This document shows, one piece after another, positions 14,595 through 31,419 of a stretch of 45,190 nucleotides of DNA. Source of the DNA: Clostridium sp. (lineage in GTDB: Bacteria; Bacillota; Clostridia; Clostridiales; Clostridiaceae); contig NZ_JAUNLM010000014.1 of assembly GCF_030532265.1 (NCBI RefSeq), positions 1 through 45,190 on the forward strand. Direction: 5' to 3'. The notes below the pieces were generated by a model. That model was given only the letters and a program-made list of their open reading frames with translations, searched no databases and was not told where the DNA came from. Position numbers and translations under genes: made by a program. How positions within the stretch are numbered: position 1 is the first letter of the stretch; the number at the start of each line of letters is the position of its first letter.

Positions 14595-14685
14595 GAAACA
14601 GTATTAAAATTTAATACGTTTATAATATAATTTATATATTAAGATTTAGATAGGTTAAACTATTTAAGCTTAAGTTTTTTAATCT

Positions 14686-14751
14686 GGAGAGATGTCCGAG
14701 TGGTCGAAGGAGCACGCCTGGAACGCGTGTGTAGGGGAAACTCTACCGTGG
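14686..14751 (+). pseudogene. Truncated tRNA-Ser(GGA) copy, left attachment site (attL)
   Basis: These 66 bases equal the 5' part of the tRNA-Ser gene at 31330 base for base: acceptor 5' strand, D-arm, anticodon arm (GGA) and variable arm. After 14751 the sequence diverges and the T-arm, 3' acceptor strand and CCA are missing, so no functional tRNA can form. It is the chromosomal half of the gene left at the int-proximal end of the insertion. Confidence 0.9.
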
Positions 14752-14917: not shown

Positions 14918-15856
14918 ATGAGAAAGAAAATAGCATTGAAAAATAACAAAAAGAAATTTAGTGAAGGTTATGATGAATTTATAAATTACTGTAAGGTTAG
15001 AAATTTAAGACCAGCAACTATAAAACATTATAATGATATTATTAAATATACTTGGAATGACTATTTTAATGCAGATAGATATATAGATGAAATTAATTTA
15101 AAGACAATTGAAGGATTCATAATTTACTGTAAGAGTAAAGGTCAAAAAGAGGTAAGCATAAATACAAATATCAGAGGCATTAGAGCAGTATTATATTATT
15201 TTATGAAGTTAGATTATTTAGATGAATTTAAAATATCTGAAATAAAGCAAAATAAAGATATTATAGAAACTTATACGAAGGAAGAAATAGAAGTTTTATT
15301 AAAAAAGCCTAATATTAAGAAATGCCCATTTTATGAGTATAGAAATTGGGTTATTTGTAACTTCTTATTAGCAACAGGATGTAGAGCAAGTACATTAGTG
15401 AACATAAAAGTTAAAGATATAGATTTAGATAATGGATTAATATACTATAGTCATACAAAAAATAGAAAACAACAAGCAGTACCAATTAGTGGAACATTGC
15501 AAGTGATTTTAGTTGAATATATAGCTTATATAAGTGATAATGAGTATTTATTCCCTAATGCATATGGAGAACAATTAAAGCCAGGAAGTTTATCTCATAC
15601 TCTTATGAATTATAATCGTAGACGAGGTATAGAAAAAACAGGATGTCATAGATGGAGACATACATTTGCAAAGATGATGATTTTAAATGGATCTGATGTC
15701 TTTAGATTACAAAAAATGCTTGGACATAGTGATATGAAAATAGTTAAAAACTATGTAAATATGTTTTCTACAGACTTACAAGAGAATTTTGATAGATTTA
15801 ATCCATTAGAAACTGTTCAACAAAAGAAAAAAGAGTATATAAAAATAAAAAAATAG
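14918..15856 (+). CDS. Tyrosine recombinase/integrase of the element
   Basis: This 312-residue enzyme should catalyse site-specific recombination at tRNA-Ser. It has an N-terminal SAM-like DNA-binding domain (about residues 15-110) and a C-terminal catalytic domain with R156 (GCRAS), H244-x-x-R247 (HRWR), H270 (LGH) and nucleophile Y279 (KNYVN). It is shorter than many phage integrases, lacks an arm-binding domain and looks XerC/D-like. GGAGAG precedes the ATG. No excisionase gene lies next to it. Confidence 0.93.
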   Translation: MRKKIALKNNKKKFSEGYDEFINYCKVRNLRPATIKHYNDIIKYTWNDYFNADRYIDEINLKTIEGFIIYCKSKGQKEVSINTNIRGIRAVLYYFMKLDYLDEFKISEIKQNKDIIETYTKEEIEVLLKKPNIKKCPFYEYRNWVICNFLLATGCRASTLVNIKVKDIDLDNGLIYYSHTKNRKQQAVPISGTLQVILVEYIAYISDNEYLFPNAYGEQLKPGSLSHTLMNYNRRRGIEKTGCHRWRHTFAKMMILNGSDVFRLQKMLGHSDMKIVKNYVNMFSTDLQENFDRFNPLETVQQKKKEYIKIKK

Positions 15857-16016: not shown

Positions 16017-17434
16017 ATGATAAACTTTCAAGACAAGGTTAATTTAATATGGAATAATGCAGAGAAGTTAAGAGGTGTATATAAAAAGGAGCAATACGGT
16101 AATGTTATTCTTCCTATGTGTGTATTAAGAAGATTTGATTGTGTACTATCTAAAACTAAGGAAGATGTTTTAAATGAGAATGAAAAATATAAATCACTTC
16201 CAGAGGAAGCAAGAGAGCAAATATTAATAAGAGTCTCAAATGAAAGTTTCTTTAATACAAGTAAGTTTGATTTTAAGAAACTTTTAGATGATTCAGATAA
16301 TATAGCTGATAATTTAAGAGATTATATAAATGGATTCTCTAAAAGTGCAAGAGAAATAATAGAGTATTTTGATTTTGATAAAGAAATAGATAAGATGGAC
16401 AGTTATTATTTGTTGAGCATTTAGTTAGTAAGATGAAAAATGATGAAGAAGGATCAAGAATAGCAATAATAATGAATGGCTCTCCATTATTTACAGGAGA
16501 TGCAGGAAGTGGAGAAAGTGAAATAAGAAGATATGTTTTAGAAAATGATTTAGTAGAAGGTATAGTAGCTATGCCAGAACAACTTTTCTATAATACAGGA
16601 ATATCAACATATGTTTGGATCTTAACTAACAAGAAATCTGATGAAAGAAAAGGAAAAGTACAACTTGTAAATGCAGTAGATTTTTATGAAAAGATGAGAA
16701 AGTCTATGGGAAATAAAAGAAATCAAATTTCAAATAGCCAAATAGATGAAATAGTTAGAATATATGGTCAGTTCAAAGAAGGAGAAAATTGCAAAATATT
16801 TGATAATGAGGACTTTGGATATAAAAAGATAACTGTTGAAAGACCTTTGAAAATGAGCTTTAAAATAACAAATGAAACTATAAGTAAAGTTAAAGAAAGT
16901 AATATATTTAAAAAGATTGCAAGTTCAAGAAAAATAGGAGAAGCAGGTGAAATCGAAATAGAAGAAGGTAAAAAACTTCAAAATAGTATAATTTCTATAT
17001 TAAATGATCTAAGAAGTGAAGAAATTTACTTAAATAAAGAAGAATTTACTGAAAAACTGAAAAAAGCTTTTAAAGAAGAAAACATTAAAGTAAGTGCAGG
17101 AGTATTAAAAGGAATACTTCAAGGACTTGGGCAAAAAGATGAAAAAGCAGAAGTTTCAAGAGATTCTAAAGGAAATTTAGAGGCAGATCCAGATTTAAGA
17201 GATACAGAAAATGTACCATTAAAGGAAAATATACAAGAGTATATGGCAAGAGAAGTTATTCCACATGTAAATGATGCTTGGATAGATAAGAAGAAAACGA
17301 AAATAGGATATGAGATACCATTTACAAGATATTTCTATAAGTATACTGCTTTAAGAAGTTCAGAAGATATAATGAAAGATATAAGAGATATTGAAAAAAA
17401 TATAAATGAGAAGTTAGAAAGACTTTTAGGATAG
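16017..17434 (+). pseudogene. hsdM: Type I modification subunit HsdM with internal deletion
   Basis: Two reading frames together make a broken HsdM. Frame one, 16017-16424, encodes the N-terminal helical domain (NLIWNNAEKLRG, LPMCVLRRFD). Frame two, open from about 16394 with its first ATG at 16433 to 17434, resumes at the tail of the methyltransferase domain (LLFVEHLVSKMK, then RIAIIMNGSPLFTGDAGSGE). The SAM-binding motif I and the NPPF/Y catalytic motif IV, which belong between them, are absent; roughly 200 residues are missing by family length. The join falls in GATGGACAG, which fits both flanks in different frames, so a deletion across a short repeat with a -1 shift explains it. No methylation activity is expected. 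Confidence 0.88.
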
Positions 17435-23956: not shown

Positions 23957-24889
23957 ATGAATGAGTATGGTGCTTTTAAAGTATGTTGTGAAAATAGAAA
24001 TGTGCGTGAATATAATATGTATCACAATCCAAAACCTATATTGATGAATGATGATTTAAGGGAAAGCATAGAAAGGTTATTATGGTATGTACCAGGAATT
24101 GACTCAGTTCAATCATATCGGCATGAATTAATAGATGATACATTATATTCAGAAGCTGTTTTTGAATTTATTTTAGAATATATAGGTATAGATAAAAATA
24201 AAGATACAGCTATACTAAATAAAAATCAATTAAGTAAATATATAAGAAGTTATGAAAATAAGATTTGTGAATCATGTCAGAAAATAATTTTAAGCATTGG
24301 TAAAAATTACAATACTAATAAAAAAGAAACTATCACGAGGTCGCTTCTTAGACATATTAGAAATTCTATTGCACATGGAAGTTTTGTAACTATTAATGAT
24401 TTAGTTATATTTAGAGATAAAAACAAATATGATGATGACATGGCTTTTATAAAAATAAGAGCTTCAAAGTTAAATCAAGCTTTAAAACTAATCGAAAAAC
24501 ATGATGGTATAACACAAGAAAAAATAATTTCAAAGGTATTTAAGAATAATGGTTTTAATGTTTATATGGGAAGGTATAAAGTTAGCAAGGGAAGAAAAGT
24601 TATCTATCCAGATATGATTTTAGAAAAATGCGGGAAAAAATTTATTATAGAAATAAAGCATCATAAGATAAAATCAAGGAAAGTTAATAAAGATTTTATA
24701 AATAATATGATTATATATTATGAAGAATTAAATGAAGAGTATACTCCTATTGTTATTTGTGATAAAAGTACTATACTGGAAGAGACTAAATATATATTGT
24801 TAGAAAATAATATTATATTATTGGATAAACGTGAAATAAAGAAATTAATTAATTTAGATAAAAGCTTATTTAAAAATACTTTATTATAA
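23957..24889 (+). CDS. HEPN-like domain fused to a PD-(D/E)XK nuclease-like domain
   Basis: A 310-residue soluble protein. The mostly helical N-terminal part ends in R135-NSIA-H140, the Rx4H motif of HEPN ribonuclease domains, with the usual surrounding LLRHIRNSIAHG. From about residue 180 comes a Mrr-like region: a helix (ISKVFKNNGF), then D219 in YPDMIL, E232-I-K234 in FIIEIKHHK, then a helix and strand (TPIVICD). That is the order of a restriction-endonuclease fold. Both catalytic sites look intact. An RNase plus DNase fusion suggests an abortive-infection or restriction factor (inference). GGGAGA precedes the ATG. It has its own terminator and is separate from hsdR. Confidence 0.75.
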   Translation: MNEYGAFKVCCENRNVREYNMYHNPKPILMNDDLRESIERLLWYVPGIDSVQSYRHELIDDTLYSEAVFEFILEYIGIDKNKDTAILNKNQLSKYIRSYENKICESCQKIILSIGKNYNTNKKETITRSLLRHIRNSIAHGSFVTINDLVIFRDKNKYDDDMAFIKIRASKLNQALKLIEKHDGITQEKIISKVFKNNGFNVYMGRYKVSKGRKVIYPDMILEKCGKKFIIEIKHHKIKSRKVNKDFINNMIIYYEELNEEYTPIVICDKSTILEETKYILLENNIILLDKREIKKLINLDKSLFKNTLL

Positions 24890-25153: not shown

Positions 25154-25681
25154 ATGGATAAAGTTTCAATAGATGAGTTACTTTTAGAAAAAGAGCGTAT
25201 AGAGATAATGAAAAATGCAAGAATAGATATACTTGAATTTGAAACACAAAATAATATTGCATTGGAAGAAGCAAAGGCTAAAGGATTAAATTTTATGGTT
25301 CAAACTATTGTTGCGATGCAAGAAAAGTTAAATGAAGTAGCTCAAATAAGAATAGAAATTATAGAAAAAAGATACTTACAAATAGTAAATGAAATAGAAG
25401 AAGTTTATAGAAGTTTAAATAAAAGGATTGATTCTGACAATTATAAATACACTGAAGAGAAATTGCCTAAATTATTAGCATTATTAGAAAACTATGAAGT
25501 AGGAAGTGTAGCTCATAATATATATAAGAAAAAAATTGAAGATGATATAAGCATGCAAATAAAGAGTTATACTATTCAAATTGAAGCATTATCAAAACGT
25601 CAGGATCAAGTAATTGCAAGTTTTTTAAGAGGTAAAGAACGTATAATTGAACAAACAAATCAAATTACTGAAGGTATTTGA
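25154..25681 (+). CDS. Coiled-coil protein, unknown function
   Basis: A 175-residue, Glu/Lys/Ile-rich, almost entirely helical protein with no cysteine, membrane segment or signal peptide. Long heptad-like stretches occur at about residues 5-100 and 125-170. GAGGTGTG lies before the ATG. No family is recognised. It follows the HEPN-nuclease gene by 264 bases, with a terminator between, so it is probably an independent unit. Possible roles include a scaffold or a sensor partner of a neighbouring nuclease; this cannot be decided from the sequence. Confidence 0.65.
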   Translation: MDKVSIDELLLEKERIEIMKNARIDILEFETQNNIALEEAKAKGLNFMVQTIVAMQEKLNEVAQIRIEIIEKRYLQIVNEIEEVYRSLNKRIDSDNYKYTEEKLPKLLALLENYEVGSVAHNIYKKKIEDDISMQIKSYTIQIEALSKRQDQVIASFLRGKERIIEQTNQITEGI

Positions 25682-25982
25682 AAAAAATTAATTAAAAATG
25701 TAAAATTTGTTATATAAGTAAATATAAATTAAACTGAGTTATGGGTTATAAAAATAATATGATTAGGATTATTTATTTTATTAAGTTAAGTTATAAAGAG
25801 ACTTAATGAAGAAGGCTACTAAGTTTTTAATGAAAGACTTTAGGTAAAATAAAATATAAATTCATTTAGAGGAGAGGGTGAAGCGAAGCAAACCCATAAC
25901 TTCCATACGCCTAAACTTTGTCTAATTAATGATTATAGTTTAAACAAATAAAAGCGTATGGATTATTGTCCGGAGTAAGAAA
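25682..25982 (+). other. Structured non-coding leader before the helicase/PIN cluster
   Basis: No gene is visible here. From about 25868 the composition becomes less AT-rich and two hairpins appear. One is GGGT...GCGAAGC...ACCC (25876-25895). The other is CCATACGC (25903-25910) with GCGTATGG (25954-25961), enclosing an inner TAAAC/GTTTA pair. The second stem ends 11 bases before GGAG (25972-25975), which precedes an ATG at 25983. It could be a cis-acting RNA leader, a small RNA or an origin-like element. It matches no riboswitch that I recognise. Confidence 0.5.
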
Positions 25983-27075
25983 ATGAGGAAATACATATGA
26001 AAAAAATGATAGTAAATACATAAATAAAAATAAAAATAGAGCTAAGGAGTATATAAAAGAAAATAATAAATATAAGGAGTATATAATTGATAATTATGAA
26101 AATTTGAAATCTAAGATATGTTTGAACATACAAGTTAATACATTAGAAGAAGCAATCAAAGAATTAGAAAAAATAGATATAAGAAAGCTTTTAAATATAA
26201 AGACTATATTAGGAGAAGAATTTGAAACAGATTTAGATGTGGATACTGGAATTGTAGCATTTATAATTAAAAGTGAGGATGACTTAGAAGAAAAAATATT
26301 AAAATTAAAATGGGAAAATAAATTTGAAGATTATACTTTAAACAGATACTTTAATTTTGGCAAAGAAATAGCTGAACTTAAATTTTTAAGAAATAATAAA
26401 AAAGCAAAAATAATTTTAAATAATAGAGATAAAACATATAAGATGGAATTTTTAGATGGTCAATATTGTTATGGAATAGTAGATTTATATGAAATAATAA
26501 TGAAAGTTGATTATTATACAGCATTAAAGGAATTAATATCATTAACTGAAATATTTGTTAGTGATATAAAGGATATAGCAAGTAATTATACTTTTAATTA
26601 TAGTAGAATTTGTTTTTGGGATAAATATAAATTTTATTATCCTTCAGCAGATAAATTTATTGGAAAGCATTTAAATAAGCTTAAAATATTATTAGATGAA
26701 GGAGTAAATGACTTATATAAAAACTATAAAGATGCTTCTATTTTTAGTGTTTCGTTAGAATTTTTAGCTAAAAATATAGGAATAAGTAAAAAAACCTTAT
26801 CTCCTATAATAAATATATTTACGGCAATTGGGTTAATTGAAAAAATTGATGATATTAAAGAAAAGAAGACAAGTTATAATAATATAACTTATTATAGAAT
26901 TCCACGTTGGACAGAAGATGTACTAAATGAAGCGAATTACTTATGTAGTAAATTTTTAGAGTTAAATGTATCTCCTACTAAAGTTACTTCTAAACATATA
27001 GCTATGGTTTTAGGAAAAGAAAATACTTTAAAAATAGTAAGAGATGATAAGGCTATAAAACTATTAGCTAAATAA
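25983..27075 (+). CDS. Initiator-like winged-helix protein, apparent frameshift near start
   Basis: The uninterrupted frame runs to 27075; its first usual start codon is a TTG at 26104 (323 residues) without a ribosome site. The same frame is open back to 25987 and reads like protein (RAKEYIKENNKYKEY). A good start, GGAG plus ATG at 25983, lies one base out of frame; removing one A from the AAA at 25988-25990 would join them into about 363 residues. Residues 100-165 (from the TTG) echo the DnaG CHC2 zinc domain without its cysteines (DLYEIIM, YYTALKEL). A winged helix follows (VSLEFLAKNIGISKKTL). It may be a replication or regulatory protein; the function is unproven. Confidence 0.6.
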
Positions 27076-27132
27076 ATTATTTATTATATATTTTAATATA
27101 TTTACATATAAGATATTAGGGGAAGTCATTAG

Positions 27133-28650
27133 ATGAATACAAAAGAAAATTTTAATGAATTAGAGAGTGTAAAACAAGAATTTATAAATACTATAAATAG
27201 TAATTTAAGAGGAGATACATATATAAAATTAAGTGATTTTAAAAAGAACTTTAGAGATAAGTATGATAATAAGTATATAGGACAAATTTTAAATATACTA
27301 ATTAAAGATAAGATGATAATTATAAAAGAATATGGTAATAAAAAAATTATAACTTTAGAAAAGTTATATAAGATAGAAAAAGAGATTATAGATTTAATAA
27401 TTGAAATAAAAGCAAAGAGAAGTATAGTTGATACTAAGTGCTTAAATAAATATATAGATAAAGTAAATGATATTAAATTAAATAATGAACAAAAGGATGC
27501 TGTATTCAATGCCTTAGGACAAAATATATGTATAATAAAAGGTAAAGCAGGAACAGGAAAAACAACTATAGTAAAAACCATATTATCAATATACAAGGTT
27601 ATAAATAATAGTGGAATAATAGATATAGTTTCTTTCACTGGTAAAGCTGTAAATAGAATATCTTTAGAAGATATAAAAGGAGCTCAGACGATACATAAAT
27701 TTTTAAAGTTAAGTACTAATAAAAATAAAAATAAAAAGGATATATTTAAAGATACAAATTTATTGGTAATTGATGAAGCAGCTATGGTGGATTTAGAATT
27801 ATTTTATAGGTTGCTAAAGAGTGTAAAAAATAATGAGAATATAAAAATTGTATTATTAGGAGATATTAATCAATTGAATCCAATAGGTTATGGAAATATA
27901 TTCAAAGAGCTTGTAAAAAGTAAATTAATAAAAGTTATTAATTTAAATAAAGTTATTAGACAATCAGAAAATTCTTTAATATTAAAAAATGCAGAAAATA
28001 TACTGATTAAAAAGAAAAATTGGATAAAAAATAAAAAGAATGAATTTGAATTTTATGATATTAGTGATAAAAAAGAGATAAGAAAACAAGCTGTTAATAA
28101 ATTTAAAGAGTTAATGGAATGTGGATATGATATTAAAGATATAGTTATATTAAATTCTCAAAATGATGGTGAATTAGGAGTAAATGCTATAAATAGAGAA
28201 TTAGTAAATGAAATAAATAATAGAGAATATAGAGATGAAAAGGGATTTGTTGTATTAGACAGAGTAATCAATATAAAAAATGATTATAAAAAGAATGTAT
28301 TTAATGGTGAAGAAGGAATTGTAGTTGAAATAAATTTAAAAAATATAGTAGTAGAATTTAATAATAAAACTATAATGTATACATTTCAAGAAGCACAAGA
28401 AATGCTAAAATTAAGTTATGCTAATACTATACATAAGATGCAAGGTAGTGAATATAAAGTAGTTATTCTTTTAGTTGATGAAAAGGATAAAATGTTAAAT
28501 AGAAATTTATCATATGTTGCAGTTACAAGGGCAAAAGAAAGATTTGTAGGTATTGGAAGTAGAGAGATATTTTTAAGATCTGTAGAAAAATCTGATAATA
28601 GAAGAATGTTATTAAATTACATATTAAAAGAAGATAATGAGATAATTTAA
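27133..28650 (+). CDS. RecD-like superfamily 1 helicase
   Basis: This 505-residue ATPase has an N-terminal ~110-residue helical domain, then Walker A GKAGTGKTT (137-145), motif Ia VSFTGKAVNR, Walker B VIDEAAMVD with D214-E215, motif III LLGDINQLNPIG, motif IV VIRQSENS, and C-terminal TIHKMQGSEYKVVIL and YVAVTRAKE. These are SF1B RecD2/TraA motifs, in the right order. It is shorter than RecD2 (about 720-750 residues) and lacks most of its N-terminal domain. It has AGGGGAAG before the ATG, 57 bases after the preceding gene, and 107 bases before the PIN-domain gene, so a single operon is likely. Confidence 0.88.
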   Translation: MNTKENFNELESVKQEFINTINSNLRGDTYIKLSDFKKNFRDKYDNKYIGQILNILIKDKMIIIKEYGNKKIITLEKLYKIEKEIIDLIIEIKAKRSIVDTKCLNKYIDKVNDIKLNNEQKDAVFNALGQNICIIKGKAGTGKTTIVKTILSIYKVINNSGIIDIVSFTGKAVNRISLEDIKGAQTIHKFLKLSTNKNKNKKDIFKDTNLLVIDEAAMVDLELFYRLLKSVKNNENIKIVLLGDINQLNPIGYGNIFKELVKSKLIKVINLNKVIRQSENSLILKNAENILIKKKNWIKNKKNEFEFYDISDKKEIRKQAVNKFKELMECGYDIKDIVILNSQNDGELGVNAINRELVNEINNREYRDEKGFVVLDRVINIKNDYKKNVFNGEEGIVVEINLKNIVVEFNNKTIMYTFQEAQEMLKLSYANTIHKMQGSEYKVVILLVDEKDKMLNRNLSYVAVTRAKERFVGIGSREIFLRSVEKSDNRRMLLNYILKEDNEII

Positions 28651-28757
28651 TAAAAAATATAAAATGATATAACAAGCAATAAAAATAATGATTATTAAAT
28701 ACCTTTTTATTAATTAAGTAATATATAATATTGATTTAAATTTAATTGGGGGATAAA

Positions 28758-30803
28758 ATGCAAGAAAACACATTTGATGAAAAAAGTATATTTAGATTAT
28801 CAACTTTGTTATATAAAGATGATAATTATAATGTAAAAAAGGATACTACATTAAGAAAAATTATAGAATCTATATTTATAGATAATAAAAATGAAAAAAT
28901 ATCTGTAATTCAAGCTATGAAGTTTTGTGAAAGTAAATATTTTTTAACTTTGCAAAAAGAAGAAATTGAAAGAATAATTAAAAAAAACAATGATAGATTT
29001 ACTATAAAATATGATAATGAAAGATTATATTTTAATTTAGAAAATAAAAGATATGAATCTATGATTAAAAATGATTATAATTATTTAGACAAATATATAA
29101 ATTTATTTATAAATTTATATAAATATGATTTAGAAAAAACGAGAGATATTCTTTATAAGTTTTTATATGAAATTTTTACTACAAATCTAAATTGTTATCA
29201 GCATTGTATAAATAATAATTCTTTAAAAGAAAATATAACAGTTGATTCTTCTAAATATACTGAACAAGAAATAAAAATTATAAATGAATTTCTTGAATAT
29301 GAAGATGAAGAAAAAAACAAAGCTATATTTAATTTAGTTAGCTTATCACTTGAATATTGTATGTTAACTGGAAATAATAATTTAATTAATAATAACCAAT
29401 TAAGAAATAAAGAATTTTTTTTAGATACTAATATAATATATAGAGCTATAGGGGTTAACGGAGATGATAGAAAAGAGTTAACAAGGAGTTTTCTAAAAAA
29501 CTGCAAAGAAAGAAAAATAAGATTAAATATATCTAAATATACTGAAGATGAATTTAATAATTCATTAGATTATTATATTAAACAAATTAAAAAATATAGA
29601 AATGCTTACAATAATTTTAATTTATATAGCAATTATGGAAAAGGTGAAGATTTATATAATAGATATTGTGAGTGGAAAAGTGGTAAAAATAATGATGATT
29701 TAAATATGTTTAAAGCGAACATTATATTAATGTATAAATCTTTAAAACAAGAATTTAATATAGATACTAACTATAGTGATTTATTAGATATGAAATCAGA
29801 AATTATTAAAAAAAATGTAGATGAGACTAAATTAGAAATATCTACTGTGAAAAGTGGAAATGGTGAATTTTCTAATGAAACTGATGCTAAAAATGTCATT
29901 TTGATAGAAGAAAAGAGAAAAAAACAAAATGTTAATACTCAAAAGTTATTAGAAATAAAATATTTTTTAATATCAACTGATTTAAAATTAAGAGAATGGG
30001 ATTATGAAAGAAGAAATGGAAATCAACCAATAGTATTTCTACCTACTCAATGGTTAAGTATAATTCTAAGGTTTACAACAAGGACATCAAATGATTTTAA
30101 GAGTTTTGTGAGTTTTTTGAGTTTAAGAAATAATGAATCTTATATAGAAAAAGAAAAAATAAATGTTATATTAAATTGTATTTCTGAAATAAGTAATGAT
30201 ATTTCAACTCAAAACTTATTAGCGAGAGAAATAATAGAAAATGAAGCTAATGAAATATTGAAAGAAAATAATTATGATCAATTAGAAGAGTTCGTAAAAA
30301 AAGAGAGTGAAAAAATAATAGATAAAAGGTTAAAAGACAAGGATGAAGAGATAGCATTAGAAAAACATCACAAAGATGAATTAGAGAAAAAGTATAATAT
30401 AAAGTTAAAAGAGAAAGAGGAAAAAATAAAGAGTCAGAATAAATTAAATGAAAAAAGAGATGAATATATAATAAATAATAATATAAAAAGAAGAATAGTT
30501 AGGAATGTTACAATTAGAATTATATGCATTATATTTATAATAGTTATTGCAATTTTACATTTATTCTTTTTGGATTGGAAATATAATTTTGTAACTAAAA
30601 TTTATAGTTGGGCTAATTGTGATAGTAGAAAAACAATATTACAGATTGGTATCGATGTGATTCTTACTGGAGTTTTCATAAAATTTATTATTGATATAAA
30701 AAATTTATTATTTAATAAAGAGTCAAGTCAATATAAAAAAATAGAGCATAAAGAAAGAAACAAATATAATGAAATAATTAATATGGAATCAGAGTATAAT
30801 TAA
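28758..30803 (+). CDS. Membrane-anchored PIN-domain protein
   Basis: A 681-residue protein. A helical N-terminal region (1-215) leads to a PIN-like nuclease: D223 in FFLDTNIIYRA, an acidic residue in SKYTEDEFNN, the Asp of NETDAKNVILIEE, and ISTDLKLREWD. That is the D-E-D-D pattern of the PIN active site. A long charged coiled coil (about 500-575) and two membrane segments (about 585-605 and 628-648) follow, with a basic tail. The ATG at 28758 has GGGGGA upstream; a TTG four codons earlier overlaps that site. The domain order suggests a membrane-tethered RNase effector controlled by the helicase before it (inference). Confidence 0.78.
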   Translation: MQENTFDEKSIFRLSTLLYKDDNYNVKKDTTLRKIIESIFIDNKNEKISVIQAMKFCESKYFLTLQKEEIERIIKKNNDRFTIKYDNERLYFNLENKRYESMIKNDYNYLDKYINLFINLYKYDLEKTRDILYKFLYEIFTTNLNCYQHCINNNSLKENITVDSSKYTEQEIKIINEFLEYEDEEKNKAIFNLVSLSLEYCMLTGNNNLINNNQLRNKEFFLDTNIIYRAIGVNGDDRKELTRSFLKNCKERKIRLNISKYTEDEFNNSLDYYIKQIKKYRNAYNNFNLYSNYGKGEDLYNRYCEWKSGKNNDDLNMFKANIILMYKSLKQEFNIDTNYSDLLDMKSEIIKKNVDETKLEISTVKSGNGEFSNETDAKNVILIEEKRKKQNVNTQKLLEIKYFLISTDLKLREWDYERRNGNQPIVFLPTQWLSIILRFTTRTSNDFKSFVSFLSLRNNESYIEKEKINVILNCISEISNDISTQNLLAREIIENEANEILKENNYDQLEEFVKKESEKIIDKRLKDKDEEIALEKHHKDELEKKYNIKLKEKEEKIKSQNKLNEKRDEYIINNNIKRRIVRNVTIRIICIIFIIVIAILHLFFLDWKYNFVTKIYSWANCDSRKTILQIGIDVILTGVFIKFIIDIKNLLFNKESSQYKKIEHKERNKYNEIINMESEYN

Positions 30804-31201: not shown

Positions 31202-31329
31202 TGTGTTAGTATTCTGAATACATACGTTTTAGGATTAAAAAAAGGATACAACACATGTTTAATTGTGTTCTTTACTCATCAAGAAATCATGTGTATTCAT
31301 CGTAGAATCAAGTGATACTAATAACATAT

Positions 31330-31419
31330 GGAGAGATGTCCGAGTGGTCGAAGGAGCACGCCTGGAACGCGTGTGTAGGGGAAACTCTACCGTGGGTTCA
31401 AATCCCACTCTCTCCGCCA
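31330..31419 (+). tRNA. tRNA-Ser (anticodon GGA), complete; contains attR
   Basis: A complete class II tRNA: acceptor GGAGAGA/TCTCTCC with discriminator G and encoded CCA at 31417-31419, D-arm, anticodon arm CACGC-CTGGAAC-GCGTG with anticodon GGA, a long variable arm, and T-arm GTGGG-TTCAAAT-CCCAC. The first 66 bases are duplicated at 14686 and came with the element or its crossover; the last 24 bases belong to the chromosome. It abuts the SRP RNA. Confidence 0.95.

What the first reader, a model, noticed from the sequence alone, without database searches (positions are those of the whole stretch)
25868..30803. Candidate new defence system: structured leader, initiator-like protein, RecD-like helicase and membrane-anchored PIN protein
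Three co-directional genes with small gaps inside a defence-type island combine a winged-helix/primase-like protein, an SF1 helicase and a 681-residue PIN-domain protein with a coiled coil and two C-terminal membrane segments. A nucleic-acid sensor or motor beside a membrane-tethered nuclease is the layout of known anti-phage systems, yet I do not recognise this trio. The system-level role is inference; the domains are read from motifs.
Basis: partly seen in the sequence, partly recalled or inferred. Interest (0 to 1): 0.75.

Follow-up and report, generated by a model that had tools for sequence, protein, structure and literature searches.

The report
Replication pair beside separate PIN nuclease
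The three neighbouring genes are real but are probably not one defence system: two look like the DNA-copying genes of a mobile element, and the third belongs to an unnamed family of membrane-tailed nuclease-like proteins that often sits among known anti-phage genes.

Summary
The observation mostly holds: three co-directional genes encode a winged-helix initiator-like protein (P1), a RecD2-like helicase (P2) and a PIN-like protein with two C-terminal hydrophobic segments (P3). The structured leader is weak. All lie in a 16.6-kb integrative element bounded by a 67-bp tRNA-Ser repeat.

The trio is not a conserved unit. P2 relatives lie beside or one gene from P1 in 4 of 5 related loci (the fifth contig ends), with a primase-like gene upstream in 3. 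P1 or P2 relatives were found at 0 of 10 loci with P3 relatives; P3 relatives at 0 of 14 P1-like stretches.

P3 is the interesting part: a diverged family (window plus 9 intact relatives) with invariant D223, E265 and D376, and no defence or PIN assignment of the window protein in four libraries. Six of its 10 intact loci have recognised defence genes nearby; those neighbours were chosen by eye, without a random control. Best reading, by inference: a stand-alone, membrane-anchored PIN RNase in phage defence. No fold prediction was obtained (12 requests, all busy), and nothing here tests activity.

The parts
14685..14751 (+). attL-like repeat: 5' part of a tRNA-Ser gene, left end of the element
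   Evidence: 67-bp perfect direct repeat with 31329-31395; in L016 the genes lgt, tRNA-Ser, SRP RNA and DHFR are contiguous
14918..15856 (+). tyrosine recombinase (integrase) just inside attL
   Evidence: Pfam Phage_integrase E 1.6e-30
25868..25990 (+). claimed structured leader upstream of P1; an AT-rich hairpin, weakly supported
   Evidence: z -1.78, 16 of 200 shuffles as stable; no such stability in three relatives; no Rfam match
26104..27075 (+). P1, winged-helix initiator-like protein (TTG start as read; conserved frame open back to 25987)
   Evidence: PHROG DnaD-like helicase loader E 3e-4; relatives in L011-L015 and in the C-terminal part of longer open frames
27133..28650 (+). P2, RecD2/Dda-like SF1B helicase without the RecD2 N-terminal ~200 residues
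   Evidence: TIGR01448 342 bits, profile 208-704 of 713; PDB 3e1s E 2e-30; phrog_4412 307 bits
28758..30803 (+). P3, PIN-like protein with a charged coiled-coil-like stretch (by eye) and two C-terminal hydrophobic segments (residues ~588-606 and ~627-645)
   Evidence: family alignment A8, invariant D223 E265 D376; sub-threshold Pfam PIN matches in three relatives
31329..31395 (+). attR-like repeat inside the intact tRNA-Ser (31330-31419), right end of the element

Best explanation
The three genes are two modules that sit side by side in a tRNA-Ser-integrated element. P1+P2 are a replication pair of such elements: P1 binds the origin region through its winged helix and brings in or works with the RecD/Dda-like helicase P2 (role inferred from relatives and neighbours). 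P3 is a separate cargo gene, a single-protein defence nuclease. It sits on the inner face of the membrane through two C-terminal helices, with a coiled coil as spacer, and is kept inactive until phage infection. Its PIN domain (D223, E265, D376, usually D408) then cuts RNA and stops growth or phage production. Shown here: the sequence family, its conserved acidic residues, its hydrophobic tail, and the lack of linkage to P1/P2 in the loci examined. Inferred: membrane placement, RNase activity, triggering and defence.
For: P2 relatives beside P1 (L011, L012, L014) or one gene away (L013): 4 of 5 P1 loci, none with PIN. DUF3991+Toprim_2 primase-like gene upstream of P1 in L011 by Pfam, similar genes by eye in L012 and L013. 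In the phylum search, P1's profile matches mostly the C-terminal part of longer open frames (505-662 aa in 9 of 10 places outside the window); one lies on a 17.2-kb contig with ParA-like and recombinase-like genes by eye; the long relative in L015 has weak PHROG DNA-primase matches (E 0.005-0.006). P3 family: 0 of 10 PIN loci with P1 or P2 relatives. Known defence genes near P3 relatives: GajA 622 / GajB 495 bits in L022; IetA 256, IetS 148, retron RT 308 and ATPase-Toprim 564 bits in L031 (same genome as L032); LmuB 165 and PDC-S60 454 bits in L033; QatA 343 bits in L002; pAgo_II 731 bits in L003; type I RM genes in the window. Single-protein PIN defence exists in print (DS-3, PMC13092281, passages seen).
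Against: Three of the 10 intact PIN loci (L045, L046, L047) have no PADLOC match among the neighbours tested (10 proteins), and L023 has only a 28-bit type II restriction match in the one neighbour tested. For the five other positive loci the neighbours scanned were chosen because they looked defence-like or were annotated so, and no random-locus control was run, so 6 of 10 is not an enrichment test. D408 is not conserved in 3 of 10 members. No Pfam PIN model reaches its cut-off in the 9 of 10 members run (L002 not run). Partner genes differ between loci (DUF6765, P63C, none). No fold model was obtained (12 requests, all busy). For P1/P2: no RecD-like relative was found at the 9 further P1-like stretches, and the integrase relatives (16 of 67 genus genomes, own included) are not linked to P1-P2 where both occur: about 60 kb away in G043, on another contig in G023, far away in G051, so the pair is not shown to belong to this element's own core. 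The element may be partly decayed (P1 start unclear; hsdM lacks its middle).
Confidence: 0.65

Rival explanations
1. The trio is a new three-gene defence system: P1 senses foreign nucleic acid, P2 processes it, and P3 cuts RNA or DNA at the membrane.
For: Same direction, gaps of 57 and 107 bases, location in an element with restriction genes; PADLOC RecD-type model hits for P2 (typeIV_RecD 212 bits).
Against: 0 of 10 other PIN loci have P1 or P2 relatives; 0 of 14 P1-like stretches have a PIN relative. P1+P2 recur with a primase-like gene instead in 3 loci.
Confidence: 0.06
2. P3 is a stability or growth-control gene (toxin-like PIN nuclease) that keeps the element in the population rather than fighting phage.
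For: PIN domains are best characterised in VapC toxins (PMC13092281 passage); P3 relatives occur on two plasmids and on this element.
Against: By eye no small partner recurs beside it, but ORFs under 80-90 aa were not listed, so a short antitoxin could have been missed. Three relatives lie among housekeeping-like genes by eye (L045-L047).
Confidence: 0.2
3. P1+P2 in this window are a decayed remnant and P3 is the only working gene of the three (compatible with the best explanation).
For: The P1 frame conserved in relatives has no standard start codon at its beginning; no match in the window to the primase-like genes of L011-L013; hsdM of the same island lacks its catalytic middle.
Against: P2 is a long open frame that keeps its helicase motifs (read by eye), and P1 is open over the conserved region; the assembly is a 131-contig draft, so small errors are possible.
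Confidence: 0.35

Closest known systems
RecD2 / Dda-type SF1B helicases (TIGR01448, phrog_4412, phrog_325)
   Same: P2 aligns to RecD2 profile positions 208-704 of 713 and to phage exonuclease V / Dda-like families.
   Different: Lacks the RecD2 N-terminal part and stays below the TIGR01448 cut-off; encoded beside an initiator-like gene.
Primase-type (AEP-like, CHC2-like, winged-helix; labels by eye) Rep-like proteins
   Same: P1 relatives match their C-terminal part (L015, L065-L069); L015 has weak CHC2 (E 0.02) and HTH_24 (E 0.03) Pfam matches.
   Different: P1 has no primase-polymerase part; in L011-L013 a separate primase-like gene precedes it.
DS-3 and DS-5 PIN-nuclease defence systems of E. 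coli (PMC13092281, passages seen)
   Same: PIN ribonuclease domains whose catalytic residues are needed for phage defence; DS-3 is a one-protein system without antitoxin.
   Different: In DS-3 the PIN domain is described as split between the N- and C-terminus, and DS-5 needs a second protein; the passages seen mention no membrane tail. Their sequences were not at hand, so homology is untested.
Pfam PIN families PIN_3, PIN, PIN_12
   Same: Sub-threshold matches at the LDTN-type motif of three P3 relatives.
   Different: No member run reaches a curated cut-off; about 110 residues lie between E265 and D376, and there is a long N-terminal region and a C-terminal hydrophobic tail.

Membership tests
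PIN-domain superfamily (for P3) | Conserved acidic residues of the active site | tested here: met
   D223, E265, D376 in 10 of 10; D408 in 7 of 10
PIN-domain superfamily (for P3) | Match to a curated PIN profile | tested here: inconclusive
   PIN_3 E 3.5e-5 (25.1 bits, cut-off 27) in L046; PIN 0.011 in L022; PIN_12 0.59 in L003; none in the window protein or the other 5 members run; L002 not run
PIN-domain superfamily (for P3) | PIN fold | not tested
   Structure prediction answered busy at all 12 requests
RecD2 helicase (for P2) | TIGR01448 equivalog cut-off | tested here: not met
   342 bits against 500: a RecD2 relative, not RecD2 itself
Replication module of an integrative element (P1+P2) | Recurrent linkage of initiator-like and helicase genes, with primase-like gene | tested here: met
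   P2 beside or one gene from P1 in 4 of 5 relatives (L015's contig ends 90 bases after the gene); primase-like gene upstream in 3 (Pfam for L011 only). Not seen at 9 more distant P1-like stretches
Replication module of an integrative element (P1+P2) | Autonomous replication | not testable with these tools
   needs experiment
Known defence system (PADLOC 2023) | Model match of the trio | tested here: not met
   P1 and P3: no family up to E 1; P2: RecD-type and other helicase or ATPase models only
New three-gene defence system | Conserved co-occurrence of all three genes | tested here: not met
   0 of 10 PIN loci and 0 of 14 P1-like stretches

The most novel reading that the evidence does not exclude
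P3 founds an undescribed, widely scattered family of membrane-anchored single-protein PIN ribonucleases that act in phage defence; in some lineages it is paired with a DUF6765 protein (whose His/Asp pattern looks, by eye, like a zinc-dependent phospholipase C), giving a two-gene system that attacks RNA and membrane.
Probability: 0.3. Interest if true: 0.65.

Novelty: new variant of a known kind. Interest (0 to 1): 0.42.

Why it matters
It removes a probably false three-gene system and replaces it with a cleaner target: one gene family, found from a Halanaerobiales MAG to Hymenobacter plasmids, often next to known defence genes, with conserved acidic residues that can be tested directly. A membrane-tethered PIN nuclease would link RNA cleavage to the membrane in phage defence. 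It also shows how replication genes of integrative elements can be mistaken for the sensor half of a defence system.

Tried and rejected
Trio as a system: rejected by the co-occurrence test. Leader as a conserved structured RNA: weak z-score, no Rfam match, no comparable stability in relatives. Phage or viral origin of P1 or P3: no match in the phage collection and none by pattern scans of viral contigs (each rests on two short peptide patterns and is insensitive). Plasmids: P1 none; L011's P1 five plasmids of Paenibacillus, Aneurinibacillus and Brevibacillus at 27-29% identity, two of them looked at; P3 two Hymenobacter plasmids. Pattern scans of genome contigs for P3: none with the window protein and, with L022+L045, only L022's own locus, a Halanaerobiales MAG. 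PDB by sequence: none for P3 or P1 profiles up to E 1.

Rows dropped: G036 in the P1 search, because the match lies in a CNNM-type gene and holds two stops; G431 (a PIN_12 protein) and G461 (a hydrolase-like ORF by eye) in the P3 search; G683 (E 7e-4) and G521 (two fragments with stops on contig C149) were not followed. L048 (G247) and the second copy in L031 (G505) look broken and were left out of the alignment of 10. L064 is a P1-profile hit that gave no blastp match; it is counted among the 14. Of the 10 places outside the window, the stretches of 7 were fetched.

Literature: five PMC searches on PIN and phage defence found no description of this family in their listings, and one on DUF6765 found no paper; most subscription papers are not held. 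PMC13092281 and PMC8195603 were seen as passages only; the rest as search listings.
Full report
What is there. The window is contig C60 (45,190 bases) of a draft genome of 2.48 Mb in 131 contigs. The three ORFs are present as described: P1 TTG 26104-27075, P2 27133-28650 and P3 ATG 28758-30803, all on +. They lie at the right end of an integrative element. A 67-bp perfect repeat (14685-14751 and 31329-31395) covers the 5' part of tRNA-Ser; the intact tRNA-Ser is at 31330-31419, followed by the large SRP RNA; a tyrosine recombinase lies just inside the left repeat; and in a same-genus genome (L016) the flanking genes lgt, tRNA-Ser, SRP RNA and DHFR are contiguous. The element is about 16.6 kb and also carries type I restriction-modification genes and an mREase_II-like gene.

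P1 and P2. P2 is a RecD2/Dda-like SF1B helicase (TIGR01448 342 bits, below the 500-bit cut-off; PDB 3e1s E 2e-30; phrog_4412 307 bits). P1 has a winged-helix region with weak matches to a DnaD-like helicase loader (E 3e-4) and O-like initiators (E 0.007). P1 relatives were found in 6 of the 97 other genomes searched (7 of 98 with its own); one (G036) is noise, leaving five. A RecD-like gene lies next to P1 in L011, L012 and L014 (P1 is a 198-aa form in L014), and one gene away in L013; in L015 the contig ends 90 bases after the P1-like gene, so nothing downstream can be seen. In L011 the gene upstream of P1 has DUF3991 and Toprim_2; L012 and L013 have similar genes by eye. A profile search hit 10 of 299 genomes of the phylum, own included. 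Outside the window, 9 of its 10 matches lie in open frames of 505-662 aa, mostly towards the C-terminus where looked at; five of these proteins (L065-L069) and L015 look, by eye, like primase-polymerase plus CHC2 plus winged helix, with weak profile support in L015. One lies on a 17.2-kb contig with ParA-like and recombinase-like genes by eye. No RecD-like relative was found at the 7 stretches fetched from that search or at the two plasmid stretches, so P2 is tied to the short form of P1 only. This reads as element replication, by inference. The L012 stretch also carries a CBASS set (cyclase 402, E1-E2 772, JAB 157 and 2TM effector 223 bits), so stretches with P1-P2 can carry other defence genes. 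Against ownership by this element: integrase relatives (16 of 67 genus genomes, own included, E up to 1e-40) are not linked to P1-P2 where both occur: about 60 kb away in G043, on another contig in G023, far away in G051.

A caveat on P1: the frame conserved in relatives extends upstream of TTG 26104 to 25987 with no ATG, GTG or TTG in it. P1 may start at the TTG and lack a conserved stretch, use a rare start, or be damaged; a draft-assembly error is also possible.

P3. The window protein reaches no curated cut-off in Pfam or NCBIfam and has no PHROGs match up to E 0.01 or PADLOC match up to E 1. Weak hits in two Hymenobacter plasmids (about 20% identity) opened the family. Searches gave: 1 of 98 relatives with the protein alone, own only; 5 of 398 phylum genomes including own (two new members, two dropped); 1 of 68 genus genomes, own only; 3 of 14 in the family of G372; 7 of 59 in its class (one split copy, one in fragments not followed); and 3 of 291 in the window's class including own (one new member, one not followed). 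Ten intact members were aligned (A8): window, L022, L045, L032, L033, L023, L046, L047, L002, L003. L222, D223, T262, E265, D376 and R387 are invariant; D408 is kept in 7 of 10; all ten have C-terminal hydrophobic segments, two overlapping ones in L002. Pfam PIN models touch three relatives at the right place without reaching their cut-offs (9 of 10 members were run). The A1 profile picked up a true PIN_12 protein at E 4.5e-4, and profile comparison with that protein aligns the LDTN motif at E 0.001 but only 22% probability. The N-terminal region resembles a winged helix by eye; L023 has a weak Penicillinase_R match there (E 0.012).

Is the trio conserved? Not in what was examined. With P1, P2 and relatives as queries, 0 of 10 PIN loci (11 stretches; the 9 intact relatives plus the split L048) hold a P1 or P2 relative, and 0 of 5 P1 loci hold a PIN relative (tblastn, E 1e-3); 0 of 9 further P1-like stretches do (blastp on ORFs of 90 aa or more). 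Flanks were up to about 10 kb and shorter at contig ends.

Is P3 a defence gene? Six of the 10 intact loci, window included, have recognised defence genes in the fetched stretch: window (type I RM), L022 (Gabija), L032 with overlapping L031 (IetAS, retron I-B), L033 (LmuB, PDC-S60), L002 (Qat) and L003 (pAgo, TIR). L023 has a 28-bit match in the one neighbour tested; L045, L046 and L047 have none among 10 neighbours tested. In the five positive loci outside the window I picked the neighbours by their look or annotation, and no random control was run, so this is suggestive only. DUF6765 genes sit beside P3 in L022 and L032 and one gene away in L033; genes annotated P63C precede it in both Hymenobacter plasmids (Pfam run for L002). 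The partner varies, which fits a self-sufficient protein with optional helpers. PIN nucleases in phage defence are already in print (DS-3, DS-5; PMC13092281, passages), so the kind is known; I found no description of the membrane-tailed family in five searches.

Verdict. The trio is best read as a replication pair beside a separate cargo gene. The cargo gene is worth a test. No structure model could be obtained because the prediction machine was busy at all 12 requests.

Noticed in passing
14685-14751 and 31329-31395: 67-bp perfect repeat of the tRNA-Ser 5' part bounds a 16.6-kb integrative element; a same-genus genome shows the site without it.
   Followed up: yes
16017-17434: The type I methyltransferase gene is in two ORFs, an HsdM_N piece and a C-terminal piece, with no NPP motif in either; the catalytic middle is missing while hsdS and hsdR are present.
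   Followed up: partly
25154-25681: 175-aa ORF upstream of P1 is 54% identical over 162 residues to part of a 402-aa protein on the same stretch as P1-P2 in G023 (L014 9916-11124); function unknown, weak type I specificity-subunit match in PADLOC (E 0.001).
   Followed up: partly
L022 5919-7031, L032 6475-7617, L033 11458-12486: DUF6765 proteins beside or near PIN relatives; the HAYADTxAHQxF-type pattern looks, by eye, like a zinc-dependent phospholipase C. No paper in the library names DUF6765.
   Followed up: partly
L031 3542-4831 and L048 8629-10349: Broken-looking further copies of the PIN family in G505 and G247, suggesting turnover of this gene.
   Followed up: partly
L012 1218-4928: CBASS set (cyclase, E1-E2, JAB, 2TM effector) on the stretch that carries a P1-RecD pair.
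   Followed up: yes
23957-24886: 310-aa ORF with weak HEPN (pEK499 p136, E 0.001) and Hjc nuclease (E 0.002) matches, directly after hsdR.
   Followed up: no
26026-26085: Two adjacent 30-nt copies (80% alike) in the stretch before the P1 TTG.
   Followed up: no
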